Assembly: GCA_001803565.1 (NCBI GenBank)
Contig: MHDQ01000025.1
Location: 1 to 16,334, forward strand
Source of the DNA: Nitrospinae bacterium RIFCSPLOWO2_12_FULL_45_22
GTDB taxonomy: Bacteria; 2-12-FULL-45-22
Direction of reading: 5' to 3'
Length of the DNA: 16,334 nucleotides
Shown here: in pieces, positions 588-13,998 of the stretch
How positions within the stretch are numbered: the first letter of the stretch is position 1
Layout: each line of letters starts with the position of its first letter
Program-made: the position numbers and the translations under genes
Notes under the pieces: generated by a model
What the model was told of the DNA's origin: nothing
What the model saw: the letters and a program-made list of their open reading frames with translations, nothing else
Database searches by the model: none

Positions 588-667
588 TAGCCACAAAAAA
601 GGCGCAAGAACGCAAAAACAAGATTAACCAGAAATCCTCTTGTACTCTCTGTGCATTTTTTGGGCTA
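588..667. repeat. Imperfect palindromic intergenic element (copy 1)
   Basis: The left arm at 588-609 begins TAGCCACAAAAAAGGC. The right arm at 646-667, read on the other strand, begins TAGCCCAAAAAATGC. They align over about 22 bases with one gap and a few mismatches. The arms resemble those of the other CAGAG/CGCAAAG-type palindromes in this window. A possible ATG at 640 lies inside the right arm, which argues against it as the start of the following gene. Confidence 0.6.
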
Positions 668-705
668 AACTGTTACCAATAATCTCATTGCCCGGGGAGA
701 GAGAT

Positions 706-1623
706 ATGAGGCTATTGAGTTTTGGCCCTCCAGGTAGAGAGAGGGCCGGGCTGTTAGCAGGCGAAGATATTATTGATCTGAGGGCAGCTTCTCATAACCT
801 TTTTGCTGAACCGCTGCCAGCCGATTTAAGGGATATCCTGGCCCTACCGGATTGGTTTGAAAAGCTCCGGCATGTTTTTGCCTCGGTTTCTTTTTTATCC
901 CGAGAGGTCTTTTATGCCCAAAACGCTACCCGGATTGGAGCTCCCATACCCAACCCATCCAAGATTATTGCCCTCGGGGCTAATTATAAAGAGCACCTGG
1001 AAGAGACAAAGATGGATATAGAAACCCCTAAAACCCCTATCCTTTTCTCTAAGGCCCCTAGTAGTGTTAATGGCCCTTATGACGATATCCTCTATCCACC
1101 AGAAACCAGGGCCCTGGATTATGAGGTAGAGCTGGCAATAGTTATCGGCCGGCAGGGGAAAAGAATCAAGCCAGGAGAGGCTTATGAGTATATATCTGGT
1201 TATACCATCCTTAATGATATCTCTGCCCGCGATATCCAGATGGGCGGGCAAAAGGGGTTGGGGGATCAATGGTTCCGGGGAAAGAGCCTGGATACCTTTG
1301 CCCCTATGGGGCCCTGGATAGTGACGAAAGATGAGTTGCCAGAGCCGCATAATCTGAGGATAAGTTTAAAACTGAATGGTGAAATAAGGCAGGATAGTAA
1401 TACTGGCAAGCTTATCTTCAAGATACCAGAGATTGTAGCCTTTGTCTCCAGTGGAATAACCTTATTTCCCGGTGATATTATATCTACGGGAACACCTTCA
1501 GGTGTGGGGATGTTTTCCAACCCACCTCAGCTCCTTCAACCCTCGGATGTTATTAAGTCAGAGATAGAAGGGATTGGGTTTTTAGAAAATAAAATAGTCT
1601 CAGAGCAATCAAGGGAAGGGTGA
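706..1623 (+). CDS. Fumarylacetoacetate hydrolase family protein
   Basis: A 305-residue protein of the FAH superfamily, which cleaves or isomerises C-C bonds in beta-keto acids and acylpyruvates using Mg2+ or Mn2+. The N-terminal 70 residues match the short FAH N-domain (MRLLSFGPPGRERAGLL) and the catalytic FAH domain runs from about 84 to 295. Visible landmarks are ANYKEH (92-97), the metal ligands in DYEVELA (E140, E142), NDISARD (D171) and GDIISTGTPSGVG near the C terminus. I chose ATG 706 because a GGGGAGAG ribosome site sits just upstream; the longer frame from 640 starts inside a repeat arm. It overlaps the next gene by one base. Family members include acylpyruvases, 2-hydroxyhepta-diene-dioate isomerases and diketo-deoxy-sugar-acid hydrolases. 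The sequence does not decide between these, and the neighbours give no pathway. Confidence 0.88.
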   Translation: MRLLSFGPPGRERAGLLAGEDIIDLRAASHNLFAEPLPADLRDILALPDWFEKLRHVFASVSFLSREVFYAQNATRIGAPIPNPSKIIALGANYKEHLEETKMDIETPKTPILFSKAPSSVNGPYDDILYPPETRALDYEVELAIVIGRQGKRIKPGEAYEYISGYTILNDISARDIQMGGQKGLGDQWFRGKSLDTFAPMGPWIVTKDELPEPHNLRISLKLNGEIRQDSNTGKLIFKIPEIVAFVSSGITLFPGDIISTGTPSGVGMFSNPPQLLQPSDVIKSEIEGIGFLENKIVSEQSREG

Positions 1624-2753
1624 TGGTGAAAGAGGGATTTTCAGAGGAGAGAACTACGGCCAAAGTCAGCATACATAAGGCAGACTATCAGGTTATAGCC
1701 GACGTTATTCCTGAAGTCTTTGCGGAATTCCCTTTACCCTGGCAGGGCAAGCGGATACTGATAAAACCCAATATGTTGGGCCCTTTCCCGGTAAATAAGG
1801 GGGTTACTACCCATCCCGCACTGATAAAGTCGGTTGTTGAATATTTGCAATCCCAGAACCCAGCCGAAATAATAGTAGGAGACAACCCAGGCGCTATGGG
1901 TTATGGTGAGAATGAAAGATGTGCCCATCAGACTGGTATCCTGGAAGGGGCTCAAGGGTATTATCGCAACCTATCCAAGAATACTATAAAAAGAGAGGTA
2001 AAATCCACTTTTGTCAAGAGCCTGGTTATCTCCCGGGAGGTCTTAGAGAGTGACATAGTGATCAATCTTCCCAAATTTAAAACCCATCTCCAGACCCGTA
2101 TTACCGGGGCAGTAAAAAATATGTACGGCATCCTGGTGGGAGGGGAAAAGGCCCGACTCCATACCATAGCTACTGATCCAGAAGACTTTTCCAGGGCAGT
2201 AGTAGAAGTCTATAGAATACGGGTACCGGAATTGACCATTATGGATGCCGTGGTCGGGATGGAGGGGAACGGTCCTTCCAATGGTCACTTGCGAAATATA
2301 AACAGGATATTGGCTTCTAACAATGGTGTTGCCCTGGATGCTGTAATGGCTTATATGATGGGTGTAGCCCCACAGGAGATCAAGTATTTACAGATTGCCC
2401 AGACAGAAGGGCTGGGAGAAATAGACCTAGATAAAATAGAGATAAAGGGACCTTTAGAACAGATAAAGGGCTTTAAAATGCCCATAAGTTTTGGCAGCCG
2501 GGGCTTGTTAGGCACTATGATTAACAAATATTTCTATTCCTCTCTGGCCAAACCCCATCTTAAGGTTAAAGAGAAGCAATGTGAGCTCTGCCAGGTCTGT
2601 TTGCAGAGTTGTCCAGTAGGGGCACTAGAGCTGAAAAAATATCCTTCCGTCCGCAGGGATTTATGCATCTCGTGTTATTGCTGTTATGAGTTATGTCCCC
2701 AATCTGCTATTGACTTTACTGGATGGCAAAAGTTCATTAACCTGATATCGTAG
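1623..2753 (+). CDS. DUF362 domain protein with C-terminal 4Fe-4S dicluster ferredoxin domain
   Basis: About 376 residues. The first 300 are a DUF362 domain: KRILIKPNMLGP near residue 45, GDNPGAMGYG near 85, NLPKFKTH and GAVKNMYGI near 150-165, all typical of this family. The C terminus is a ferredoxin-like module with clusters C320, C323, C326, C330 and C348, C351, C354, C358 (extra C353), followed by a short hydrophobic tail. No signal peptide is seen, so it should be cytoplasmic. The biochemical role of DUF362 proteins is not well established; the iron-sulfur module suggests electron transfer. The start is in doubt among GTG 1620, ATG 1623 and GTG 1626. ATG 1623 lies six bases after AAGGGA and overlaps the FAH stop codon (TGATG), so translation is probably coupled to the FAH gene. 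Confidence 0.88.
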   Translation: MVKEGFSEERTTAKVSIHKADYQVIADVIPEVFAEFPLPWQGKRILIKPNMLGPFPVNKGVTTHPALIKSVVEYLQSQNPAEIIVGDNPGAMGYGENERCAHQTGILEGAQGYYRNLSKNTIKREVKSTFVKSLVISREVLESDIVINLPKFKTHLQTRITGAVKNMYGILVGGEKARLHTIATDPEDFSRAVVEVYRIRVPELTIMDAVVGMEGNGPSNGHLRNINRILASNNGVALDAVMAYMMGVAPQEIKYLQIAQTEGLGEIDLDKIEIKGPLEQIKGFKMPISFGSRGLLGTMINKYFYSSLAKPHLKVKEKQCELCQVCLQSCPVGALELKKYPSVRRDLCISCYCCYELCPQSAIDFTGWQKFINLIS

Positions 2754-2844
2754 GGATTAAGGAAGATTTGTCTAAAGTTATAAGCTAAAGAGGCGATAAA
2801 TATAAGTAAGTGCTAAGTCGTAAATGCTTACCAGATAGCCGGAT

Positions 2845-3750
2845 ATGAACGGTGGGAGGAAGGGAATATTTATTTGTCTTGCCACGGCAACAATTTTGTC
2901 TTGTGCTGGGCCGAAAAAGGGTATAAAATATGAACCAGCAGAGAGCCTGGTGGAAATCCTTAGTGAATTTCAGAGGCAAATAACCTATGACTCTTACAGA
3001 TTCCCTACCCCTAAAGATTTAGCGGGGAGGAATATTTTTAAGGCTACTCTGGTCAAGCTGAATAACTATGAAAAGCTTTACCCTGGAAGATTCAAGCAAA
3101 TAATTGCCTTTAACAAAGCTAAATCCTGGGAAAGACTCCAGGACTACCGGCGGGCTATCAAGTACTATAAAGACGCAGAGCAGTATATGCCGCTTAAAAA
3201 AACAGCCCGGCAAAATATCCAAATATGTCAGGAATTTAATAATTTAAAAAAGCAATATGAAAAATTTCCAGGTAAGGAGCCAGAAGCGGTGTTAGCAAGA
3301 TTGGATAAAATGATAGATTCGTGGGAACCCCTTATTCGTAAATATATGGGCACACCCTATGAACCTCTGGCCAGAGAAGAACGGGAGCAACTAGAGTTTG
3401 CCCGGGTATTATTTCTTGAAAAAAACTGGTTCCACCGGTCAAAAGGCAAATTGCTTATACATAACAGTTATCGCTCTTTAATAAAGAAACATATAGAGAG
3501 TAAGAACATAAATCGCTATTTTATAAAATTTGGCGATTTCTATGCCCGTTTAGCCCATGAATATGCAGAAGAGTATGACCCCGAGAGTATTCATTTTAAC
3601 AGCAAAGATTTTGAAAGACTGGCTAATTATGCCTCAGAGTTGTATGAGGTGCCAGCTTCTAAAGACGGGATAGCAGAAAAAGTAGAGGCAAAAGGCAAAT
3701 TGGATGCCCTGAGTTCTTATATGAACTATGTTAAAGAACTGAATCAATAA
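2845..3750 (+). CDS. Putative lipoprotein with TPR-like helical repeats, unknown function
   Basis: A 301-residue protein with a lipoprotein-type signal: basic n-region (NGGRK), hydrophobic stretch and lipobox ILSC, with C20 as the predicted lipidated residue (next residues A-G). The mature part is charged and helical. Around residues 90-120, KAKSWERLQDYRRAIKYY and the following segment look like a TPR helix pair, and the rest is lysine- and tyrosine-rich helix. ATG 2845 has only a weak ribosome site upstream; a GGGAGGAAGGG stretch lies just inside the gene. I do not recognise a named family. The next gene also encodes an exported TPR-like protein and follows by 116 bases, so the two may act together in the cell envelope, for instance in assembly or transport. 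That link is inference from position only. Confidence 0.7.
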   Translation: MNGGRKGIFICLATATILSCAGPKKGIKYEPAESLVEILSEFQRQITYDSYRFPTPKDLAGRNIFKATLVKLNNYEKLYPGRFKQIIAFNKAKSWERLQDYRRAIKYYKDAEQYMPLKKTARQNIQICQEFNNLKKQYEKFPGKEPEAVLARLDKMIDSWEPLIRKYMGTPYEPLAREEREQLEFARVLFLEKNWFHRSKGKLLIHNSYRSLIKKHIESKNINRYFIKFGDFYARLAHEYAEEYDPESIHFNSKDFERLANYASELYEVPASKDGIAEKVEAKGKLDALSSYMNYVKELNQ

Positions 3751-3762
3751 CCGAAATTATGC

Positions 3763-3839
3763 ACCGCAAAAGCACAAAGTTCAGTAAGCAGTTAACTCCT
3801 CACGGCTCACTGCTTACTCCCCTCACTGTTCTTTGCGGT
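3763..3839. repeat. Nested palindromic intergenic element (copy 2)
   Basis: Outer arms ACCGCAAAAG (3763-3772) and CTTTGCGGT (3831-3839) enclose a perfect 10-base inner inverted repeat, AGTAAGCAGT (3783-3792) with ACTGCTTACT (3809-3818), loop 16 bases. It lies between the lipoprotein stop and the ribosome site of the next gene. An ATG at 3759 begins just before the left arm and would translate the element, so it is unlikely to be the true start of that gene. Confidence 0.7.
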
Positions 3840-3866
3840 TATGATATAAACAGAAGGGAGGATCAA

Positions 3867-5930
3867 ATGCGGAAGTGGTCCTTTTTGCTGTTTGATCTCA
3901 TATTAATCTTATTAACTCTTCTGTTGCCCAATCTGTTGTGGTCTTTCTCGGGAAAAGACCTTGTTCAGAATAATAGCGCAATCAAGCCCTGCCCCCTTTC
4001 GGACGAAGAAGAGACTCTTTTGGCCTTAACCCTGGGCATCATCAATACCACTAATCAGATAGGATTTGAAGAGGCCAGGAAGCTTCTACGCGAAGACGAG
4101 GCTATTAAATTCGGCAAGCTATTTAATTTTTTCTTCTCCAGACTCAATTTTTGGAATGAATTAGACATTGAAGATATTGCCCTATTTCAGATAGGGCCCG
4201 CCTTCACCGCAAGCAAGAAAACCGTTGACCTGATAAGAGATTCCCAGGACTTGATCTCTGAATGGAGAGATATATCAACCCGGGAGAGGAAGGCCTTAGT
4301 CAAATATGAAACCTTCTTACGGAAATATCCGCACAGCAAATATGCCCCTGCGGTACAAAGGAAATTGCAAAAGTTAAAAGCTAAGAAGAGCCGCCATGAT
4401 TATCTTCTGGAGATGAAGCTGGCGAAGCAGGCCCTTAAGGCTGAGGATTTACCTCTGGCAAAGAGACACTATCAAACGGCCCTGAGACTATCACCTGCCA
4501 CCCATAAAGAAGTCTTAAAGGCCCTGTATAAGCTAGCAGAATTAGAAAGGGCCGATCGGGATAGAAAAAGAACCTTTGACCTGGTGAAGCCAGGGGGTGA
4601 AATATTTCTAAACCCAGGAGAAAAAGAGAACTATGAAGAACTCCTGGTCTCCCTCTCTCAACATGACACTGATACTCTCCTCGCGGCCAGCAATGAATTT
4701 GTTCAAAGACATAAAAGCAGCCCCTTAAAGGATGAGGCGGAGGTTTCTGTCGCACTGGCTTATGAGTTTAAGGACGATTTGTCACAAGCCAAGAAGGTCT
4801 TTAAGCAGGTAGGGAGAAAATATCCTGAGAGCAATATGGGGAGATATGCCCGACGCATCGCTGCTAACCCCCATTACGACTTATATGCCTCGGTAAAAAA
4901 AACCGTAAAAAACCGCCAAAAAGAAGCGATCAAATATGTCCTCTTAGGAGAAAATTCCAACCTGGCCTGGTTTCAAGAGGGAGTGACCGGATGGACAAAA
5001 CAGGCATACCATCTTAAAGAAAATCAGAAGCAAATCTCTTCGCCTAACCGGCTGATAAGTCGTGCCTTTGAGGTATTTGTACAGAAGAAAGTCCCTACCA
5101 ATCAAACTACTATCACTTTAGGAGAAGAGTATTTGAAAAAATATCCCCGTTCCAAACGGACGCCGGAGGTACGGAAAATAGTTGCCCGGGCTTATGAGGA
5201 GGAGAAACTTTATAATTCGGCCTTATTCCACTATAATTTGATTGGCAACGTACCAGGCAACAAGCTGAAAGAGTTAGAAGATAAAGCCGCTATAGACCTT
5301 CTACAGGGGGTTACACCGGATAAAAAAAACCTCTATTATGCTAATATCCTGGAATTATATCCCCACAGTGATGCGGCTCATCTCATCAGAAAATATACTA
5401 ATAATAAGGGTGCTGGTGGTGTTATCGGGCCAAAAGAAAAAACTGGCGGGATTAGTTTTGAGATTTCATCAGGCAGTTCCCCAATAATGCCCCTATTAGG
5501 AAGTAATTCCTGGCTGCTAAAAGCTAGAGATAATAGCTCTCTACCTGTTTCCCATCCATTATTAGGATTGAGCATGAACTTCGGGCGCAATTCTACTACC
5601 TCACCTGAGCAAGCGAATAGTCCTCAATTATTCGGACTTCCTTTGCACCTGAAAAAAGAATGGGTTAAAGAGGATGAATATTCTATGGGATACCAGTTGT
5701 GGGATGAAAAGCAGTTTGCTACTGGTAAACTCTCTTTAGAGCAGTGGGATGCGGTCGCCCAAATGGGGGTAAATAAAAAGGGCCCCAACACCCAGGTTCA
5801 TCTCCCGATACCCGTAATAAAAAATTTCATCCCCCTGGCCTTAAGAGTGCGTGCAAAGTTAGGAAGGGTGCAGTTCTTACCTGTCATGGAAGATATTGAA
5901 CTTGACGATGCCGCTTTATATCAGGATTAA
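3867..5930 (+). CDS. Exported TPR-like repeat protein, unknown function
   Basis: A 687-residue protein starting at ATG 3867, seven bases after AGAAGGGAGG. The first 25 or so residues form a signal peptide or N-terminal anchor (MRKWSFLLFDLILILLTLLL...). The mature protein is mostly helical with several BamD/YbgF-like tetratricopeptide units recognisable by the '..KYPxSK..P.V' pattern: KYPHSKYAPAVQRKL near 153, HKSSPLKDEAEVSVALAYEF near 280, RKYPESNMGRYARR near 317 and KKYPRSKRTPEVRKIVARAY near 427. The last 150 residues lose this pattern, are rich in glycine, serine and proline and then become more beta-like; I recognise no domain there. It is probably periplasmic or attached to the inner face of the outer membrane as a scaffold. 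It pairs with the upstream lipoprotein. Start codons further upstream fall in a repeat and have no ribosome site. Confidence 0.78.
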   Translation: MRKWSFLLFDLILILLTLLLPNLLWSFSGKDLVQNNSAIKPCPLSDEEETLLALTLGIINTTNQIGFEEARKLLREDEAIKFGKLFNFFFSRLNFWNELDIEDIALFQIGPAFTASKKTVDLIRDSQDLISEWRDISTRERKALVKYETFLRKYPHSKYAPAVQRKLQKLKAKKSRHDYLLEMKLAKQALKAEDLPLAKRHYQTALRLSPATHKEVLKALYKLAELERADRDRKRTFDLVKPGGEIFLNPGEKENYEELLVSLSQHDTDTLLAASNEFVQRHKSSPLKDEAEVSVALAYEFKDDLSQAKKVFKQVGRKYPESNMGRYARRIAANPHYDLYASVKKTVKNRQKEAIKYVLLGENSNLAWFQEGVTGWTKQAYHLKENQKQISSPNRLISRAFEVFVQKKVPTNQTTITLGEEYLKKYPRSKRTPEVRKIVARAYEEEKLYNSALFHYNLIGNVPGNKLKELEDKAAIDLLQGVTPDKKNLYYANILELYPHSDAAHLIRKYTNNKGAGGVIGPKEKTGGISFEISSGSSPIMPLLGSNSWLLKARDNSSLPVSHPLLGLSMNFGRNSTTSPEQANSPQLFGLPLHLKKEWVKEDEYSMGYQLWDEKQFATGKLSLEQWDAVAQMGVNKKGPNTQVHLPIPVIKNFIPLALRVRAKLGRVQFLPVMEDIELDDAALYQD

Positions 5931-6033
5931 TGTCTGAACTTAGCCGGAAAATCTCCCTTCTTTCAAACATCCTTATTCCTCCCCATTTATCTTGATAGTA
6001 TAGGAATTTTCATTTTAATAATGCGGTTTTGTG

Positions 6034-6065
6034 GTAGTCGCAGGCTTTAGCCTGCGCTAATTTAA
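6034..6065. repeat. 32-base hairpin repeat, copy A
   Basis: CGCAGGC (6039-6045), loop TTTA, GCCTGCG (6050-6056): a perfect 7-bp GC-rich stem with a 4-base loop, flanked by GTAGT and CTAATTTAA. The whole 32 bases occur again unchanged at 11306-11337. It is a REP-like extragenic palindrome. No U-run follows it, so it is not a typical terminator. Confidence 0.85.
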
Positions 6066-6124
6066 CTTTGTCAGATTAAAGTATCTAGGTTCAGATATAA
6101 CCGCAAAGGACGCGAAGAATGACC

Positions 6125-6353
6125 AGGGAAAATGTTCCGGTTTTTGGCATCCTTCAAAAGTAGTTACCAGTTTGAGAAAAGGAAAATAGTTTTTTAACCC
6201 TTCACCGCAGAGAGCGCAGAGCCCGCGGAGAGGCCAGAGAGTTCTTTTCTATGTGATCTCTGCGTGCTTTGCGGTAAATTAGTAAAATAATCTTATCGAC
6301 TAAAAGTGTTAACTACTTTTTGGGCGAAATGAAGGATGCCCGGTTTTTCCCTA
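6125..6353. repeat. Nested palindromic element (copy 3)
   Basis: The outer arms pair AGGGAAAA, CCGG, GGCATCCTTC and AAAAGTAGTTA (6125-6167) with their complements in 6308-6353, in the same nested order and with small unpaired interruptions. Inside is an 18-base pair of arms, ACCGCAGAGAGCGCAGAG (6204-6221) against 6258-6275, matching at 15 of 18 positions. The inner pair is the same motif as in copies 2 and 7. The outer pair is different and suggests one element placed within another. Confidence 0.75.
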
Positions 6354-6370
6354 AAACTTTTCAAACGGTT

Positions 6371-6508
6371 AGCCACAGAGTCACGGAGGACACAAAGTAG
6401 CAGCAGGGCCTTGCCCTGCCATAAGGGTAAAAGTTTTAAGTAGGGCGTTGCATGCAACGTCCTTACTCGCCACCTACCCTTCCTCTGGGTCCTCTGGGCC
6501 TCGGTGGC
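6371..6508. repeat. Palindromic element with hairpins in its loop (copy 4)
   Basis: Outer arms of about 26 bases (6372-6397 beginning GCCACAGAGTCACGGAGG, and 6483-6508) match at about 20 of 26 positions. The 85-base loop holds two perfect hairpins: GCAGGGC-CTT-GCCCTGC (6403-6419), and the 14-base palindrome CGTTGCATGCAACG (6446-6459), which extends outwards by about seven more pairs, two of them G-T type. It ends about 55 bases before the phosphodiesterase start codon. Confidence 0.78.
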
Positions 6509-6562
6509 AATATTAATAGTTAATGTAACAATGTCAAACTAGCAGGATGATGGTCGCTGAGC

Positions 6563-7411
6563 ATGTCTAAATTTAAGCCCTATGTTGATTTTGCCGGGGT
6601 TATGAATATGGCCCATCGAGGCGGGGCGGGCCACGGCCCGGAAAATACCCTCCAGGCATTCCAGCAGGCATTAACCGAAGGGGCGCAGGTATTTGAGCTG
6701 GATGTACATCATACCCAGGATGGTTATATTGTTGTGCATCACGACCCGGATCTAGAAAGGACCGCTGGGGTCTCCTTAAAGATCAGTGAAACCCCTTTGA
6801 AAGTCTTGAAAACCTTTGATATCGCCCAACCCTTCCGGCGCTCTAATAATAACCCGCCCCCTCTTATATTCCAAGCCCTGCAACAAACTATAACCCTTCC
6901 TACCCTGGCAGAGGTCTTTGATGAGTTCCCCCATGCCCGAATAAATATAGATATAAAACCCAGGAAAGCTTTCCCGGTATTAGAATTAATCCGATTAATT
7001 GAAGAGAAGGGTATGACCGAGCGAGTGCTGGTAGTCTCCCAATATAGGAAATATCTACGAATTACCCGGAGGATAAACCCGCGGCTGGCTACGGGACTTT
7101 CTATGTCTGAAGTATTCTGCCTCAAATTCATCCCGTTTTACCGTCCAAAAGGCGATGCCTTACAGATCGGCTGGCTATATTATCTAAAAGGACTGATCGC
7201 TATCGGAAAAGTCACCCGGAGACTGGTGGCTAAAGCCCATAGAAAAGGCCTAAAGGTCCATGTCTTTATCACTGAGGGCAAAGCGGGTATGCCGCCAGAG
7301 GAGAGGATAGAAAAGGAAGCCGGAGATATTAAGAGGCTCTTAGATTTGGGGGTTGATGGAATAATAACCGATTACCCTTCCCTTCTAAAACAGATATTAG
7401 ATAATAAGTAA
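6563..7411 (+). CDS. Glycerophosphodiester phosphodiesterase (UgpQ-like, cytoplasmic)
   Basis: A 282-residue GDPD-family enzyme. It hydrolyses glycerophosphodiesters (from phospholipid head groups) to sn-glycerol 3-phosphate and an alcohol, using a TIM-barrel fold and a divalent metal. The signature is clear: AHRGGAGHGPENT (H18, R19, E27, N28), ELDVHHTQDG (E45, D47) and VVHHDPDLERT with catalytic H60, followed by NIDIKP near 131 and GVDGIITDYP near the end. The general acid-base pair H18/H60 and the metal ligands E45/D47 are all present. There is no signal peptide, so it resembles cytoplasmic UgpQ rather than periplasmic GlpQ. It sits directly ahead of phoB-phoR, and such enzymes are often Pho-regulon members, so a role in phosphorus scavenging fits. 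I see no convincing PHO box in front of it. Confidence 0.92.
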   Translation: MSKFKPYVDFAGVMNMAHRGGAGHGPENTLQAFQQALTEGAQVFELDVHHTQDGYIVVHHDPDLERTAGVSLKISETPLKVLKTFDIAQPFRRSNNNPPPLIFQALQQTITLPTLAEVFDEFPHARINIDIKPRKAFPVLELIRLIEEKGMTERVLVVSQYRKYLRITRRINPRLATGLSMSEVFCLKFIPFYRPKGDALQIGWLYYLKGLIAIGKVTRRLVAKAHRKGLKVHVFITEGKAGMPPEERIEKEAGDIKRLLDLGVDGIITDYPSLLKQILDNK

Positions 7412-7413
7412 AA

Positions 7414-7544
7414 TTTAGCCACCGAGACCGCAGAGAAAAGAGCTAAAAGTGGAAAGTGCAAGGTGTAAAGCTAAGGAATAATTCCATAGTTTTGCGCTTT
7501 TCGCTTTAAGCTTTGCAGTTTATCTCGGTACCTCGGTGGCTAAA
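7414..7544. repeat. Nested palindromic element (copy 5)
   Basis: Outer arms are a perfect 13-base inverted repeat, TTTAGCCACCGAG (7414-7426) and its complement (7532-7544). Inside, a second imperfect pair of about 23 bases begins GCTAAAAGTGGAAAGTGC (from 7442) and pairs with about 7488-7512. At the centre is a perfect GGAAT-A-ATTCC. The element fills most of the gap between the phosphodiesterase and phoB. Confidence 0.82.
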
Positions 7545-7583
7545 CAAATACTATAACAAGCATGATTACCACGGGATTGACGG

Positions 7584-8267
7584 ATGGCCAGAGAAAAGAT
7601 ACTGGTAGTAGAAGATGAAGAGGATATCCTGAATTTAGTTGATTATAACCTGCGCCAGGGAGGATTCCAGGTCATTCGGGCAGTAGATGGGGAAACAGCC
7701 CTGGCCCTGGCTAGACAAAAGCCCCCAGACCTCATCATCCTGGATTTGATGCTTCCGGGCATGGATGGGACCGAGGTATGTAAGACCTTAAAGCAGGAAG
7801 GTGCTACCCGGCGGATACCAATCATCATACTTAGCGCCAAAGGAGAAGAGATGGATCGGGTAATAGGACTGGAGCTAGGGGCGGCTGATTATGTAACTAA
7901 ACCCTTCAGCCCCAGAGAGTTAATCTTGAGGGTCAAAGCGGTCTTACAGCGGGGCCTCCCGGAGGAAGAAAACGAAATCCCAATTCAAGTAAGTGACTTA
8001 ACCATTAATATAGCTGAACACCAAGTCTACGTGAAGGGAAAACCGATCGAGCTCACGCATACGGAATTTAAACTCCTGGCATATCTGCTCAAGAATCGGG
8101 GACGGGTTCAGGACCGGGAGAGCCTCCTGGCTCACGTTTGGGGCTATGACTCGGTAGTATATGGCCGGACCGTAGATACCCATATACGCCGCCTCCGGGC
8201 CAAGATAGACCCCTTAGGAGAGTTCATTGAAACCATTCGCGGTGTGGGGTATCGGTTCAAAGAATGA
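7584..8267 (+). CDS. phoB: Phosphate regulon response regulator PhoB
   Basis: A 227-residue OmpR/PhoB-family response regulator. The receiver domain (about 4-120) has the acidic pocket E10, D11, phosphoacceptor D54 in LILDLMLPG, S84 and K106 in TKPFSPREL. The winged-helix DNA-binding domain (about 130-227) ends GVGYRFKE. Its recognition helix reads RTVDTHIRRLR (R195, H200, R202, R203, R205), preserving the residues that in E. coli PhoB contact the PHO box. The stop overlaps the start of the histidine kinase gene as ATGA, so the two form a classic phoB-phoR pair. It most likely binds the two PHO-box promoters at 9653 and 13943. I see no PHO box directly in front of phoB itself; a TATAAC at 7552 lacks a clear -35. 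Alternative: another OmpR-family regulator, but context favours PhoB. Confidence 0.93.
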   Translation: MAREKILVVEDEEDILNLVDYNLRQGGFQVIRAVDGETALALARQKPPDLIILDLMLPGMDGTEVCKTLKQEGATRRIPIIILSAKGEEMDRVIGLELGAADYVTKPFSPRELILRVKAVLQRGLPEEENEIPIQVSDLTINIAEHQVYVKGKPIELTHTEFKLLAYLLKNRGRVQDRESLLAHVWGYDSVVYGRTVDTHIRRLRAKIDPLGEFIETIRGVGYRFKE

Positions 8268-9538
8268 CGGATTTATCATTAGTAATACCTCTGAGTATTA
8301 TCCTGGCATTAATTCTGGTTTACTGGTATCGTAAAACTTTCTATTTTCCTTTACAGAAACTCATCCTGTTTGCTCACCAGCTCTTAGCTGGTCAATATAA
8401 AACCCACCTGGATATCCCACCCAGTAGTAATGCGAGCATACGGGCCCTCGGCCAGTTACTGAATCAATTAGCCATTGAATGGGATAAAAAGAGTCAGGGG
8501 TTAATAACCGAAAAAGAACACCTGCTGGCAGTATTGCGGGGTATGGGAGAAGGGGTTATGGTTACCGATAAGCATGCCCGGATAATATTAATCAATCCTG
8601 CCTTTCGTAAGATATTTTCTGTCGAGGGACTTGTAGAGGGCAAAACCTCCCTCGAAATAATAAGGGATATAGGCCTTGAAGAAGGGATGGAAAGGGTTCT
8701 TCATGGTCAGGAGGAAAGAGTGACTTTAGAGATGAATCACTCATTCCCGCAGGAGAAGACCCTGGAAGTAAATATAACTTCGTTAGGGACAGAAACTGGT
8801 GGCAGTGGTATCCTGGCGGTTTTTCACGACATTACAGAACTTAAACGCCTGGAAGGGGCCCGGCGAGATTTTGTGGCCAATGTATCCCATGAGCTCCGTA
8901 CCCCCTTGACTTCTATTGTAGGATATACCGAGACCTTAATCGAAGGAACCCTTAACGACACCGAGACAGCCCAGAATTTTCTGATGATTATCCAAAAACA
9001 TGCCCAGAGACTGGCTGCGATAGTAGAAGATCTATTAACTATTTCCCAGATTGAGTCGCGTCAGCTAGACCTCACTTTCCAGCCCTTATCACTGGCCGAT
9101 TGTGCTCGAGAAGTACTGAATACTATAGAAAGGGCCTGTGAAGAGAAGGGATTAAAACTGGTTAATGCCTTATCTCCTGAGTTGCCTAAAGTAGGGGGAG
9201 ATAGGTACCGGATAGAACAAATCCTCCTTAATCTGTTAGATAATGCCGTGAAATATACTGCTAGCCCGGGTTCGATAACTATCTCCGCTAAACATAAGGG
9301 AGATATGGTTGAGGTAGCAATAACTGATACCGGCATCGGGATCCCGCAAAAGGACCTGAGCCGAATATTCGAGCGCTTCTATCGGGTAGATAAGGCCCGC
9401 TCCCGCAAGCTCGGTGGGACGGGATTGGGGCTATCTATCGTGAAGCACCTGGTACAGGCCCACAACGGAAAAGTGTGGGCAGAGAGTGAAGAAGGCCGCG
9501 GCTCGACCTTTTATTTCACCTTGCCTAAAGCTCCCTAA
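8264..9538 (+). CDS. phoR: Phosphate regulon sensor histidine kinase PhoR
   Basis: A 424-residue membrane-bound sensor kinase. A single clear membrane segment lies at residues 4-21, with no periplasmic domain, as expected for PhoR, which senses the state of the Pst/PhoU complex rather than external ligand. A linker (about 25-80) leads to a PAS domain (about 85-195, LRGMGEGVMVTDKHARIILINP). The dimerisation and phosphoacceptor region is FVANVSHELRTPLTSIVGY with H209. The ATPase domain shows the N box (QILLNLLDNAVKYT), DTGIGIP and GGTGLGLSIVKHL. It overlaps phoB by four bases (ATGA). It should autophosphorylate under phosphate limitation and pass phosphate to PhoB D54, and perhaps also to the second regulator at 14007, which has no kinase of its own in the window. 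Confidence 0.92.
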   Translation: MTDLSLVIPLSIILALILVYWYRKTFYFPLQKLILFAHQLLAGQYKTHLDIPPSSNASIRALGQLLNQLAIEWDKKSQGLITEKEHLLAVLRGMGEGVMVTDKHARIILINPAFRKIFSVEGLVEGKTSLEIIRDIGLEEGMERVLHGQEERVTLEMNHSFPQEKTLEVNITSLGTETGGSGILAVFHDITELKRLEGARRDFVANVSHELRTPLTSIVGYTETLIEGTLNDTETAQNFLMIIQKHAQRLAAIVEDLLTISQIESRQLDLTFQPLSLADCAREVLNTIERACEEKGLKLVNALSPELPKVGGDRYRIEQILLNLLDNAVKYTASPGSITISAKHKGDMVEVAITDTGIGIPQKDLSRIFERFYRVDKARSRKLGGTGLGLSIVKHLVQAHNGKVWAESEEGRGSTFYFTLPKAP

Positions 9539-9848
9539 ACATTATATCTTTATCTCTTCCCCCGCATCTATACGGTAAGCCATTACCACAAAAGTAACAT
9601 ATCTCTGATACCTGGCAAATCCTTTTCTTGAAACCTCATCCCTCCCTACATTATTTAACGGTATTGTAACATTCCGTTAAGGTGGTTGTAACTTTATCGG
9701 GATAAGATTACTAGCCAGTATGAAGAAAAGTAGCGGAGAGGGAAAGGAGGTGAGGACAGAGTCTTGCGAGGTATCAGTAATATTAATTTTCGGGGTTATT
9801 AGGTTATCAGGAAGAATATGTTAACTGTTTTAGCTAAGGAGGTGTGTG
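9539..9848 (+). other. 310-base region with PHO-box promoter and porin leader
   Basis: The first 110 bases show no gene or strong structure. The PHO-box promoter occupies 9653-9708. From the predicted transcription start (about 9715) a leader of roughly 130 bases runs to the porin start. It contains a second strong ribosome-site-like sequence, AAAGGAGGTGA (9743-9753), inside a 34-codon frame (9720-9824) that is discussed as a possible leader peptide. Unlike most gaps in this window it carries no palindromic element of the CAGAG type. Confidence 0.7.
9653..9708 (+). promoter_or_regulatory. PHO-box promoter 1 (upstream of the porin and pstS)
   Basis: Four seven-base half-sites are spaced by exactly four bases: ATTTAAC (9653), TTGTAAC (9664), CGTTAAG (9675) and TTGTAAC (9686-9692). 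The 11-base period is that of the PhoB PHO box (7-mer, 4-base spacer, 7-mer). Exactly ten bases after the last half-site comes TAAGAT (9703-9708, four of six matches to TATAAT), the spacing seen in PhoB-activated promoters, where the PHO box replaces the -35. An incidental 7-base inverted repeat, TTAACGG/CCGTTAA (9655-9661, 9674-9680), overlaps it. Confidence 0.85.
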
Positions 9849-11174
9849 GTGAAAAGATTCTGTAGCTTGTTAGCTTTTTCTTTGTTCCTGTTCTGGCCCC
9901 TGGTTAGCTGGGCCACCGATGAGGAGCTGTTGATGCTCCTGAAGACCAAAGGGGTCATTACCCAGGAGGAGATGGATGGCCTCCTGGAGCGGGTAAAAGG
10001 GCGGGAGAAGAAAGATAAGACCCTCAATGCCTTCTATAAGGATGGCTTTCAGGTACAAACGGTAGATAAGTCTTTTAAGATGCAAGTCGGTGGTCGCGTA
10101 CAGGGGGATTATCTAGGGCTGGACAATAATGACACCGATGATAGTTCCTTCACTATTCGGCGGGCCCGGATCTTTGCCTCGGGTGATCTTTTTAAACATA
10201 CTGATTTCAAAGGTGAGATAGACTTTGGTCAGGGCAACGATGCCAGCCTTACGGATGGTTACTTGAATTTTAAATATCTAAAGTGGGCCCAGCTCCGGAT
10301 CGGTCAGTACAAAGAGCCCTTTTCTCTGGAAGAGTTGACCTCATCCCGTTATATAGACTTTGTGGAGCGGTCTACTCTAAACAGCTTAGTTCCAGCTAGA
10401 GATATAGGTCTCATGGTTCATTCTGAATTCTTGGAAGGGACTATAGGTTATGGCCTGGGTATCTTTAATGGCAGTGGCCTTAACCAGAGACGCGATCAGA
10501 ACGATGATAAAGATATTGCCGGCCGGCTCTATTTCCGTCCCTTTGCCCAGAGCGAGTCCATGTTCCTCAAAGGGCTACAATTGGCTACTAACTTTACCGT
10601 GGGTAATCAGGAAGGCGGTCTCAGTACCATAAGAACCCCTGCCGCAAGAACATCTATTATTAGCTGGGCTAGTGGGGTGAAGAGCGATGACCGCCGCACC
10701 CGTTTTGGGGCGGACCTGGCCTGGGTCATCGGTCCCTTCTCTCTGAAGAGCGAGTATATCAGGGCAGATTGGGACAATCTCAGGCTAAAGAATAGGCAAG
10801 AAGACTTTGATATCCAGGGCTGGTATGTAACCGGCAGTATCTTCCTTACCGGTGAAGAGAAGCCCTTTAAAGAAGGTGCCTTTGGCCGGCTGAAGAAGGT
10901 GCATAGCTTTGATCCCCAAAAGTCCGGTTGGGGGGCCTGGGAACTCCTGGCCCGCTACGATACCCTCAGGGCCGATGATGATATCTTTGACCTGGGCTAT
11001 GCCACCGGCACTGACCGGATCAATGCCTTTACGGTAGGCCTGAACTGGTACCCGCATAATATGGTGACCGTGAAATTCAACTATGTCCATAACTCCTATG
11101 ATGACAACTTGAAGGAGCTCGAGGGAGACGATTCAGAAGACCTCTTTCTGACCCGGCTCCAGGTAGAATTCTAA
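9849..11174 (+). CDS. Phosphate-selective porin O/P family outer-membrane protein
   Basis: A 441-residue OprO/OprP-type porin. A signal peptide (KRF, hydrophobic core, cleavage after SWA at 22) is followed by a short helical segment TDEELLMLLKTKGVITQEEM, as in porins with an N-terminal coiled stretch. The rest is a beta barrel: KMQVGGRVQGDYLG, SSFTIRRARIFASGDLFKH, FKGEIDFG, LRIGQYKEPFSLEELTSS and a C-terminal strand ending in phenylalanine (RLQVEF), the usual outer-membrane sorting end. In Pseudomonas, trimeric OprP channels are selective for phosphate; selectivity here is inferred from family and context. The PHO-box promoter upstream and pstS downstream support a role in phosphate uptake. 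I prefer GTG 9849, seven bases after AGGAGG; GTG 9846 is also possible. Third codon positions appear richer in C and G than in the upstream TPR gene. Confidence 0.88.
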   Translation: MKRFCSLLAFSLFLFWPLVSWATDEELLMLLKTKGVITQEEMDGLLERVKGREKKDKTLNAFYKDGFQVQTVDKSFKMQVGGRVQGDYLGLDNNDTDDSSFTIRRARIFASGDLFKHTDFKGEIDFGQGNDASLTDGYLNFKYLKWAQLRIGQYKEPFSLEELTSSRYIDFVERSTLNSLVPARDIGLMVHSEFLEGTIGYGLGIFNGSGLNQRRDQNDDKDIAGRLYFRPFAQSESMFLKGLQLATNFTVGNQEGGLSTIRTPAARTSIISWASGVKSDDRRTRFGADLAWVIGPFSLKSEYIRADWDNLRLKNRQEDFDIQGWYVTGSIFLTGEEKPFKEGAFGRLKKVHSFDPQKSGWGAWELLARYDTLRADDDIFDLGYATGTDRINAFTVGLNWYPHNMVTVKFNYVHNSYDDNLKELEGDDSEDLFLTRLQVEF

Positions 11175-11183
11175 AGTGATTCT

Positions 11184-11280
11184 GGACACAGATGAACACA
11201 GATAATTTCGAGTTGTGTGTTAAACCCGTAACTCGCAACCCGTAACGAGTTACTGTAGGTATCTGTGAAAATCTGTGTCC
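11184..11280. repeat. Nested palindromic element (copy 6)
   Basis: The outer arms at 11184-11204 and 11260-11280 match at 18 of 21 positions (GGACACAGAT, three mismatched bases, CACAGATA). The inner arms GTAACTCG (11228-11235) and CGAGTTAC (11246-11253) are a perfect 8-bp stem with a 10-base loop. It begins ten bases after the porin stop, within the probable porin-pstS transcript. Confidence 0.82.
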
Positions 11281-11290
11281 CAACTTAAAG

Positions 11291-11337
11291 TGGTAATCGC
11301 AGGCTGTAGTCGCAGGCTTTAGCCTGCGCTAATTTAA
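11291..11337. repeat. 32-base hairpin repeat, copy B, with partial duplication
   Basis: Positions 11306-11337 are identical to 6034-6065: stem CGCAGGC (11311-11317), loop TTTA, GCCTGCG (11322-11328). Just before it, TGGTAATCGCAGGCT (11291-11305) repeats the left half of the same element. The extra half-arm could form an alternative stem with the single GCCTGCG arm. The stem ends about 14 bases before the pstS ribosome site. Confidence 0.85.
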
Positions 11338-11352
11338 AGAGAGGAGGAAAGA

Positions 11353-12348
11353 ATGATGATAGGGAGTAAGATCATAAGCAAGATTCTAAGTGTAGTTACC
11401 AGTTGTGTTTTAGTTGGAATAGTGACATCTATTAGCTTAAGCCAGGAGGCCATCCAGGTAGACCCCGGTATCACCTCCTACCAGAAGGCCATCGGTGTCT
11501 CGGGCAACCTGAGTAGTGTCGGTTCCGATACTATCCTCAACCTCATGACCCTCTGGGCCGAAGGGTTCAAGAAGGCCTATCCCAATGTCAATATTCAGAT
11601 CGAGGGGAAAGGCTCCAGTACTGCACCACCGGCCCTCATCTCTGGCACTGCGCAGCTCGGACCCATGTCCCGGGCCATGAAGCCCACTGAGATTGATGAA
11701 TTTGAGGCCAAGTTCGGCTATAAGCCCACCCAGATTAAGACCGCCATCGATACCATCGGGGTCTATGTCCACAAAGATAATCCTATCCAGGGCCTTACCA
11801 TGGGCCAGGTAGATGCTATATTCTCCAAGACCCATCGCTGTGGCAACCCCAAAGAGATCCGTACCTGGGGCGACCTGGCCCTCACGGGCGAGTGGGCCGA
11901 CAAGCCCATAAGTATCTATGGCCGTAACTCGGCCTCTGGCACCTATGGCTTCTTTAAAGAAAATGCCCTCTGCAAAGGCGATTACAAAGATGAGGTCAAG
12001 GAGCAGCCCGGGTCGGCTGCCGTAGTCCAGGGTGTTACTGAGGACCGCTACGGGATTGGTTATAGCGGTATCGGGTATGTCACCTCCGGGGTAAGGGCGG
12101 TACCCTTGGGTTTCGAAAACAAGGGTTTTGTCGAAGCCAATATGGAGAATGCCATGAATGGCTCTTATCCCCTGGCCCGCTTCCTCTATGTCTATATCAA
12201 TAAGGCGCCCGATAAACCCCTGGAGCCCCTAGTTAAAGAGTTCATTAAGTTCATCATGAGCCGGGAAGGCCAGGAGGTAGTCATAAAAGATGGTTACTTT
12301 CCCCTGACGGCAGATTTAGTGGCCAAGGAATTGGCCAATCTAGAATAG
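11353..12348 (+). CDS. pstS: Phosphate ABC transporter substrate-binding protein PstS
   Basis: A 331-residue periplasmic phosphate-binding protein. An N-terminal signal segment (residues 1-30) precedes the PstS fold. [15 protein letters not shown] (near 50-64) and [23 protein letters not shown] (near 85-107) form one half of the phosphate site, and [15 protein letters not shown] (near 196-210) supplies the conserved R/S/G-T contacts. [19 protein letters not shown] follows. The protein captures Pi in the periplasm and delivers it to PstC-PstA. A GAGGAGG ribosome site precedes ATG 11353; ATG 11356 is an equal alternative. VTSC at 15-18 resembles a lipobox, but the hydrophobic stretch continues past it, so normal cleavage near SLSQ is as likely. 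It is probably cotranscribed with the porin from PHO-box promoter 1. The gene is separated from pstC by three other genes, an uncommon order. Confidence 0.93.
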
Positions 12349-12355
12349 GAATACT

Positions 12356-12440
12356 TACCGCAGGGACACAGAGGCCGTGGAGAGAATGGACCTAAACCAG
12401 GGTACCCACAGCCTCCTCAGCGTCTCAGCGCCTCTGCGGT
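12356..12440. repeat. Palindromic intergenic element (copy 7)
   Basis: ACCGCAG (12357-12363) and CTGCGGT (12434-12440) are perfect inverted arms. The arms continue inward with weaker pairing: GGACACAGAGGCC against the complement of GTCTCAGCGCCT. The loop is about 30 bases. It fills the gap between the pstS stop and the metallophosphoesterase start. Confidence 0.65.
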
Positions 12441-13959: not shown

Positions 13960-13998
13960 CCATTCCTTAACCTGCCTGTAACATTTCCAGGCTATAAT
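13943..13998 (+). promoter_or_regulatory. PHO-box promoter 2 (upstream of second regulator and pstC)
   Basis: Half-sites repeat every 11 bases: ATTTAAT (13943), TTGTAAC (13954), CCTTAAC (13965) and CTGTAAC (13976-13982). A weaker fifth, AGATAAC, lies at 13932. Exactly ten bases after the last half-site is a perfect TATAAT (13993-13998). The geometry is identical to promoter 1. The array overlaps the 3' end and stop codon of the MBL gene. Transcription should start near 14004-14006, only one to three bases before the ATG of the next gene. Confidence 0.88.

What the first reader, a model, noticed from the sequence alone, without database searches (positions are those of the whole stretch)
588..12440. 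Family of nested intergenic palindromes with CAGAG/CGCAAAG-type arms
Seven copies (588-667, 3763-3839, 6125-6353, 6371-6508, 7414-7544, 11184-11280, 12356-12440) occupy nearly every gap over about 100 bases. Each has outer arms of a shared style (CCACAGAG, ACCGCAGAG, GGACACAGAT) and often a second, unrelated pair of perfect inner arms. The arm sequences vary while pairing is kept, which suggests selection on structure or repeated insertion of related elements. The gap at 2754-2844 has only a weak possible remnant (GTAAG/CTTAC at 2807-2830). The two gaps that hold PHO boxes have none. I recall similar-looking repeats in other environmental genomes but know no named family or function.
Basis: partly seen in the sequence, partly recalled or inferred. 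Interest (0 to 1): 0.62.

Follow-up and report, generated by a model that had tools for sequence, protein, structure and literature searches.

The report
Nested mobile palindromes with CACAGAG arms
The gaps between genes in this bacterium are filled with hairpin-forming DNA repeats that behave like small mobile elements, landing between genes and inside one another; the same unnamed motif occurs in hundreds of copies across many bacterial phyla, and no enzyme that moves it is known.

Summary
The hairpins are real. All seven fold better than shuffles (z -2.9 to -9.4), and six of the seven gaps over about 100 bases hold one. They are not one family. The set mixes (i) CRCRGAG-armed palindromes, 86 strict arm hits genome-wide against 1 for the reversed control; (ii) a sister GGACRCAGAT family (11184-11280); (iii) a MITE-like element at 6146-6340 with 8-bp target duplications and a CRCRGAG hairpin in its middle; (iv) a second composite (about 6350-6516) whose CRCRGAG arms enclose GTAG-type REPs; (v) a degenerate copy (588-667). 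Nesting is insertion into insertion.

The strict arm motif is found in 86 of 192 held genomes, abundantly in a minority, and as palindromes in at least nine phyla. One MAG has about 330 elements. In Roseateles one palindrome is missing at the same operon junction in 7 of 7 congeners; another is present in 4 species and absent from 7. In an acidobacterial MAG the elements sit about 20 nt behind stop codons, as REPs do. Arms match within a copy, but four inherited copies mostly drift without compensation. Repeated insertion is supported; a conserved RNA is not. The richest genome has no Y1 (RAYT-type) transposase. I found no published name.

The parts
588..667 (.). Degenerate hairpin in a divergent intergenic gap; membership in the CRCRGAG family uncertain
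   Evidence: Folds at z -3.5, but the 5' arm is CCACAAAAAAGGCGCAAG with no CAGAG unit
3763..3839 (.). CGCAAAG-subtype palindrome with an inner AGTAAGCAGT/ACTGCTTACT palindrome about the same centre
   Evidence: z -4.6; a sibling at G000:C207 shares the flanks AAATTATGCACCGCAAAG and CTTTGCGGTTATGA (L261)
6034..6065 (.). GTAG-tagged REP-type palindrome GTAGTCGCAGGCTTTAGCCTGCGCTAATTTAA; identical copy at 11306-11337
   Evidence: Direct repeat D3, 100% identical
6062..6129 (+). Left end of another dispersed CGCAAAG-armed element (CAGATTAAAGTATCTAGGTTCAGATATAACCGCAAAGGACGCGAAGAATGACCAGGGAA)
   Evidence: Related copies at C315, C158, C46 and C207 of the same genome
6138..6145 (.). Target-site duplication CGGTTTTT, left copy
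   Evidence: Exact 8-bp repeat flanking the element
6146..6340 (.). MITE-like element M1, ends GGCATCCTTC and GAAGGATGCC; related copies of 92 to 379 bp elsewhere in the genome
   Evidence: duplications at other copies: GAGTTTTT, CATTTTTA, AAATATTA, AGCAATGA/AGCAAGGA
6204..6275 (.). CRCRGAG palindrome (ACCGCAGAGAGCGCAGAG ... CTCTGCGTGCTTTGCGGT) in the middle of M1
   Evidence: z -4.2; the whole module is absent from the 92-bp copy at C232 (L251)
6341..6348 (.). Target-site duplication CGGTTTTT, right copy; runs into element M2
6350..6516 (.). Composite element M2 (core), CRCRGAG arms 6372-6388 and 6480-6507; four further copies
   Evidence: Aligned with C53, C74, C119 and C51 copies; z -4.2
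6397..6466 (.). GTAG-tagged palindromes nested inside the arms of M2
   Evidence: GTAGCAGCAGGGCCTTGCCCTGCC at 6397 and GTAGGGCGTTGCATGCAACGTCC at 6440
7414..7544 (.). Palindrome TTTAGCCACCGAG/CTCGGTGGCTAAA, 2 nt behind the GDPD stop codon, enclosing an AAAGTGC-type palindrome
   Evidence: Perfect 13-nt arms; z -9.4
11184..11280 (.). Sister GGACACAGAT-family palindrome, about 10 nt behind the porin stop codon, enclosing CCCGTAA-type repeats
   Evidence: 21-nt arms; 25 genome hits, 0 control
11306..11337 (.). Second copy of the GTAG-tagged REP-type palindrome
12356..12440 (.). CRCRGAG palindrome about 8 nt behind the pstS-like stop codon
   Evidence: z -2.9

Best explanation
The repeats are non-autonomous mobile palindromes (MITE/REP-like): short dispersed DNA elements with terminal arms made of degenerate CRCRGAG (or CGCAAAG, CAGAT) units in inverted orientation. 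Copies are added by insertion into intergenic DNA and survive best just behind stop codons. Later elements land inside earlier ones, giving nested palindromes with unrelated inner and outer arms. Shown: genome-wide multi-copy dispersal, intergenic confinement in the samples studied, 8-bp target duplications around the M1 composite in the window, paralogous copies with and without the CRCRGAG module, and empty orthologous sites for the same motif in Roseateles. Inferred: that the stand-alone CRCRGAG copies in this window arrived the same way, that an unidentified enzyme supplied in trans moves them, and that a copy behind a stop codon works as an mRNA 3'-end hairpin (stability or weak termination), a by-product rather than the reason for its presence.
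For: Own genome: 86 strict hits against 1 control. M1 element with target duplications CGGTTTTT, GAGTTTTT, CATTTTTA, AAATATTA and a 7/8 match AGCAATGA/AGCAAGGA; the 92-bp copy lacking the CRCRGAG module (L251); M2 in five copies. Roseateles: at a hydrogenase-gene junction seven of seven congeners have the two genes abutting where R. oligotrophus carries the palindrome; at a second locus 4 species are filled and 7 empty. Copy number varies from 0 to 133 strict arm hits among seven species of one genus. Patchy occurrence: 86 of 192 genomes have at least one hit; palindromic copies occur in Acidobacteriota, Planctomycetota, Verrucomicrobiota, Proteobacteria, Geobacter, Cyanobacteria, Chloroflexi, Gemmatimonadetes and Actinobacteria. 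Placement: 16 tandem-context copies in one MAG lie 11-35 nt from the stop codon, uniform placement p 0 of 200,000.
Against: No transposase flanked by CRCRGAG arms was found; Y1 transposases are absent from the richest genome, and of 30 Y1 loci examined only two had an arm nearby, on one side. No target duplication was found around stand-alone CRCRGAG palindromes. The window's own stand-alone copies have no close relative to compare with (one same-order genome is held, and the one gene I located there showed no element nearby). The 92-bp M1 copy could be a deletion rather than the empty state. In cyanobacteria the motif is mostly one-armed, so a palindrome is not obligatory.
Confidence: 0.72

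Rival explanations
1. The palindromes are bidirectional intrinsic terminators or mRNA 3'-end hairpins kept by selection, and dispersal is secondary.
For: In the acidobacterial MAG 27 of 31 copies lie beside a stop codon and 11 of 31 lie between convergent genes. Outward shoulders are T-rich on both strands, 0.44 against 0.22 background. In the window four copies start 2-13 nt behind a stop codon. At one Roseateles site other species carry different hairpins in the same place.
Against: T-rich shoulders are equal on the transcribed and untranscribed sides in tandem contexts (0.44 and 0.43), and only 11 of 62 shoulders have a run of four or more T. The terminator scan over the window finds no more sites than shuffles. 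In the window genome many copies are far from stop codons or upstream of divergent genes. GTAG and CGTC REPs show the same placement (PMC3733652).
Confidence: 0.3
2. A conserved structured RNA family whose pairing is maintained by compensatory change.
For: Within-copy arm matching exceeds between-copy matching (permutation p below 1/5000). First-unit type agrees between arms in 14 of 15 copies, p 0.002.
Against: Four orthologous Roseateles copies show one compensated position among about ten changed positions, and one has 8 of 31 mismatches. No Rfam family matches. Loops, inner sequences and lengths are unconserved. Sites are empty in relatives.
Confidence: 0.07
3. The arms are matched because in-place DNA synthesis (hairpin snap-back or template switching at replication forks) copies one arm from the other, so palindromes grow and self-correct without a transposase.
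For: Flanks beyond the shared motif are copy-specific yet self-complementary, e.g. about 12 outward pairs in L175 and L148. Nested palindromes share one centre in several window copies. No dedicated transposase was found.
Against: Does not by itself explain the same motif in hundreds of places and many phyla, nor the target duplications of M1. Orthologous arms drift apart rather than correct.
Confidence: 0.15
4. The motif is a DNA uptake sequence whose inverted pairs double as terminators, as in Neisseria and Pasteurellaceae.
For: Short motif in high copy, inverted pairs behind genes; spread across species.
Against: The arm motif is largely intergenic and comes as tandem degenerate units; strict hits differ from 0 to 133 within one genus. 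Competence was not tested.
Confidence: 0.04

Closest known systems
GTAG/CGTC REPs (repetitive extragenic palindromes), BIMEs and REPINs
   Same: Short high-copy palindromes, intergenic, placed just behind stop codons and between convergent genes; patchy across phyla (PMC3733652)
   Different: No GTAG or CGTC tag on CRCRGAG elements; arms are tandem degenerate 7-9 nt units; no Y1/RAYT gene needed (G201 has none). GTAG REPs are present in this genome as a separate family, and two of its Y1 genes are flanked by them
MITEs (miniature inverted-repeat transposable elements)
   Same: M1: terminal inverted repeats, 8-bp target duplications, no coding capacity, multi-copy
   Different: M1 carries a nested CRCRGAG palindrome as cargo; stand-alone CRCRGAG copies show no target duplication and no parent transposon was found
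Cyanobacterial STRR and other heptamer repeats (e.g. TAACTGA in Beggiatoaceae, PMC4679880)
   Same: Degenerate short units of about seven bases in near-tandem; sporadic distribution over unrelated phyla; in a cyanobacterial genus the motif sits beside heptamer arrays. STRR itself is recalled from memory, a lead only
   Different: Here the units form inverted pairs enclosing a loop or another element, with 1-2 nt between units
Intrinsic (Rho-independent) terminators
   Same: Strong hairpin behind stop codons, T-rich shoulders in some genomes
   Different: No strand-specific U-tract; high-copy shared sequence; variable placement in the window genome

Membership tests
REP (GTAG or CGTC super-families) | Unpaired GTAG or CGTC tag at one end of the palindrome | tested here: not met
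   CRCRGAG elements begin with TTA(A/G)CC(A/G)C-like ends and are symmetric; only the nested inner elements carry GTAG
REP (GTAG super-family) | Associated RAYT (Y1) transposase flanked by the repeat | tested here: not met
   30 Y1 loci in CRCRGAG-rich genomes: none flanked on both sides, two with a single arm nearby; G201 with about 330 elements has no Y1_Tnp
REP-like placement | Intergenic, close behind stop codons, convergent or tandem contexts | tested here: met
   Acidobacterial MAG: 27 of 31 by a stop codon; less strict in the window genome
MITE (element M1, 6146-6340) | Terminal inverted repeats with target-site duplication, no coding capacity, multiple copies | tested here: met
MITE (stand-alone CRCRGAG palindromes) | Target-site duplication and a parental transposase with the same ends | tested here: inconclusive
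   Clean empty sites in Roseateles but no duplication recognisable; only Y1 transposases were checked as parents
Intrinsic terminator | Hairpin followed by a U-tract on the transcript | tested here: not met
   No strand asymmetry of T; T-run of four or more in 11 of 62 shoulders; the window scan equals shuffles
Structured ncRNA | Compensatory changes among orthologous copies; match to a described family | tested here: not met
   One compensated change in four orthologues (small sample); no Rfam match
STRR heptamer repeats | Tandem heptamer arrays | tested here: inconclusive
   Units are 7-9 nt and degenerate, arranged as inverted pairs
DNA uptake sequence | Promotes DNA uptake in a competent host | not testable with these tools
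   Needs an uptake assay

The most novel reading that the evidence does not exclude
CRCRGAG palindromes are a bacteria-wide class of mobile DNA, present in at least nine phyla and up to hundreds of copies per genome, moved by a mechanism that is neither a RAYT/Y1 transposase nor a classical transposon with its own gene, and able to enter the loops of existing hairpins so that palindromes nest.
Probability: 0.28. Interest if true: 0.75.

Novelty: new variant of a known kind. Interest (0 to 1): 0.5.

Why it matters
A repeat motif this common (about 330 elements in one genome, many phyla) that apparently has no name means that a sizeable share of intergenic DNA in environmental bacteria is not annotated for what it is. 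Such hairpins can be mistaken for regulatory RNAs or terminators, and they insert between genes of an operon, so they can change expression. The missing mover is a concrete open question: the species pairs and loci listed here (Roseateles, a cyanobacterial genus, an acidobacterial MAG with no Y1 transposase) make it testable.

Tried and rejected
Rfam scan of the window: nothing. Literature search by motif strings and by concept: no paper naming the motif; sequence strings in papers are hard to search, so absence is weak evidence. RAYT/TIRYT as mover: rejected as a general mover. Terminator scan: no excess. Longest-ORF gene calls put 24 of 83 elements 'inside genes'; codon-usage gene calls on the acidobacterial MAG put none of its 31 inside genes, so most of those were probably artefacts of spurious ORFs. 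Comparison of a window gap with the one same-order genome: the protein hit there is only about 30% identical with no element nearby, uninformative. A covariance model was not built: loops and inner sequences are not homologous between copies, and pattern searches with a reversed control answered the abundance question.
Full report
OBSERVATION. The window is G000:C25, a contig of a 3.67-Mb, 321-contig genome whose only same-order relative held is G001. Its genes are mostly a phosphate regulon on the + strand: GDPD, PhoB/PhoR-like pair, a phosphate-selective porin, a PstS-like protein, phosphoesterase, a second PhoB-like regulator and a probable transporter subunit (and the sequence). All seven reported intervals fold better than dinucleotide shuffles, z -2.9 to -9.4 (the third was tested as its core 6200-6280). 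Six of the seven gaps over about 100 bases hold one; 9539-9845 does not.

ABUNDANCE. The strict arm pattern CCRCRGAGN{0,4}CRCRGAG occurs 86 times in the genome against 1 for the same pattern read backwards. In about 0.54 Mb of this genome the single unit CRCRGAG is about nine times denser between genes than in genes (115 in 14% of the sequence, 80 in 86%), and all 22 paired elements whose gene context could be assigned are intergenic (part of this sample was chosen for hits).

THE SEVEN ARE SEVERAL FAMILIES. Copy 11184-11280 carries GGACACAGAT units, a sister motif with 25 own hits, no control hits, and a different set of host genomes. Copy 3763-3839 is a CGCAAAG subtype with a sibling at C207 that shares its flanks (L261). 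Copy 588-667 is degenerate. The interval 6125-6353 is a MITE-like element, M1, at 6146-6340: ends GGCATCCTTC/GAAGGATGCC and an 8-bp target duplication CGGTTTTT on both sides. Other M1 copies have their own duplications (GAGTTTTT, CATTTTTA, AAATATTA, and AGCAATGA/AGCAAGGA with one mismatch), and one 92-bp copy lacks the CRCRGAG module. The next interval, 6371-6508, is the core of a second composite, M2, with four more copies; inside its CRCRGAG arms lie GTAG-tagged palindromes. M1's right target duplication runs straight into M2 sequence, so M1 appears to have landed in M2; M2's outer left part is not recognisable upstream (inference). Further upstream is the left end of yet another dispersed element (window 6062-6129). 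The 5931-6562 gap is thus a pile of insertions.

NESTING. In the rest of the genome the CRCRGAG arms enclose other short-unit repeats: AATGACC, AAAGTGC, GGAGTGA, CCCGTAA types and GTAG REPs. Nested palindromes with unrelated arms are the expected product of elements landing inside elements.

BEYOND THIS GENOME. 86 of 192 genomes have at least one strict hit, a minority have dozens to more than a hundred, with near-zero controls in most. One acidobacterial MAG has about 330 elements. Within one cyanobacterial genus strict hits range from 0 to 133; there the motif is mostly one-armed and sits beside heptamer arrays (that this genus is cyanobacterial is inferred from its sequences, the handles being unnamed).

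MOBILITY. In Roseateles oligotrophus a palindrome separates two hydrogenase genes; in seven of seven congeners with the same junction the two genes abut. At a second junction four species carry the palindrome and seven do not. At a third, one species has it and the others have different hairpins or a short gap. These are relatives of the motif, not the window's own copies; the window's own direct evidence is the M1 duplication.

STRUCTURE OR HISTORY. Flanks beyond the shared motif are copy-specific but self-complementary (within against between copies, permutation p below 1/5000), and the first unit agrees between arms in 14 of 15 copies of the window genome (p 0.002). But the four orthologous Roseateles copies at one site show only one compensated position; one copy has drifted to 8 mismatches in 31. 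The simplest reading is that arms are alike when a copy is born and then drift. The sample is small.

PLACEMENT AND EFFECT. In the acidobacterial MAG 31 of 31 copies are intergenic, 27 lie beside a stop codon, and tandem-context copies lie on average 21 nt behind it (uniform placement p 0 of 200,000). REPs show the same placement (PMC3733652). T-rich shoulders are present on both sides equally and rarely form a real U-tract, so termination is possible but not a defining feature. In the window genome placement is looser.

MOVER. Two Y1 genes of the window genome are flanked by GTAG palindromes, as expected for RAYTs, which gives the nested GTAG elements a plausible mover. Y1 loci in CRCRGAG-rich genomes are not flanked by CRCRGAG arms, and the richest genome has no Y1 gene at all. 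The mover of CRCRGAG elements is unknown.

NAMES. No held paper on bacterial repeats prints the motif strings searched and none of the concept searches found a matching family. Most subscription papers are not held, so I claim only that I found no name.

VERDICT. Real, several families, best read as nested non-autonomous mobile palindromes of REP/MITE kind; not a new RNA class. Interest lies in the breadth of distribution and the missing mover.

Noticed in passing
window 6034-6065 and 11306-11337: Two identical 32-nt copies of a GTAG-tagged palindrome (GTAGTCGCAGGCTTTAGCCTGCGCTAATTTAA).
   Followed up: partly
L033 and L034 (G000:C49, G000:C141): Y1 transposase genes flanked by GTAG palindromes, a typical RAYT arrangement.
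   Followed up: partly
L036, L037, L047, L048 and others: Many further short-unit repeat families in the same genome (AAATCCT, ATCAGCT, AATGACC, CCCGTAA, CAATAACC, AAAGTGC, GGAGTGA), often as inverted pairs.
   Followed up: no
L088-L117 (genus of G048): One-armed CCACAGAGTCACAGAGGACACAGAGG beside GGCAAGA, GGGAACA and GGCAGTA heptamer arrays; strict hits 0 to 133 among seven species.
   Followed up: partly
L049 5518-5781 and L241: A TGTCATTCCGAGTGAAGCGAGGAATCT-type repeat, another dispersed palindrome, nested in or beside CRCRGAG elements.
   Followed up: no
L298-L316, L339-L347 (Roseateles transporter-gene junction): Different species carry different hairpin families at the same intercistronic site, suggesting that a hairpin there is tolerated or useful whatever its sequence.
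   Followed up: partly
window 6508-6532, 9649-9673, 13961-13985: Related 25-nt sequences with TGTAACA cores (PHO-box-like at the last two); the first lies at the end of element M2.
   Followed up: no
L261 (G000:C207): Sibling of the 3763-3839 element sharing its flanking bases but with a different inner part.
   Followed up: partly
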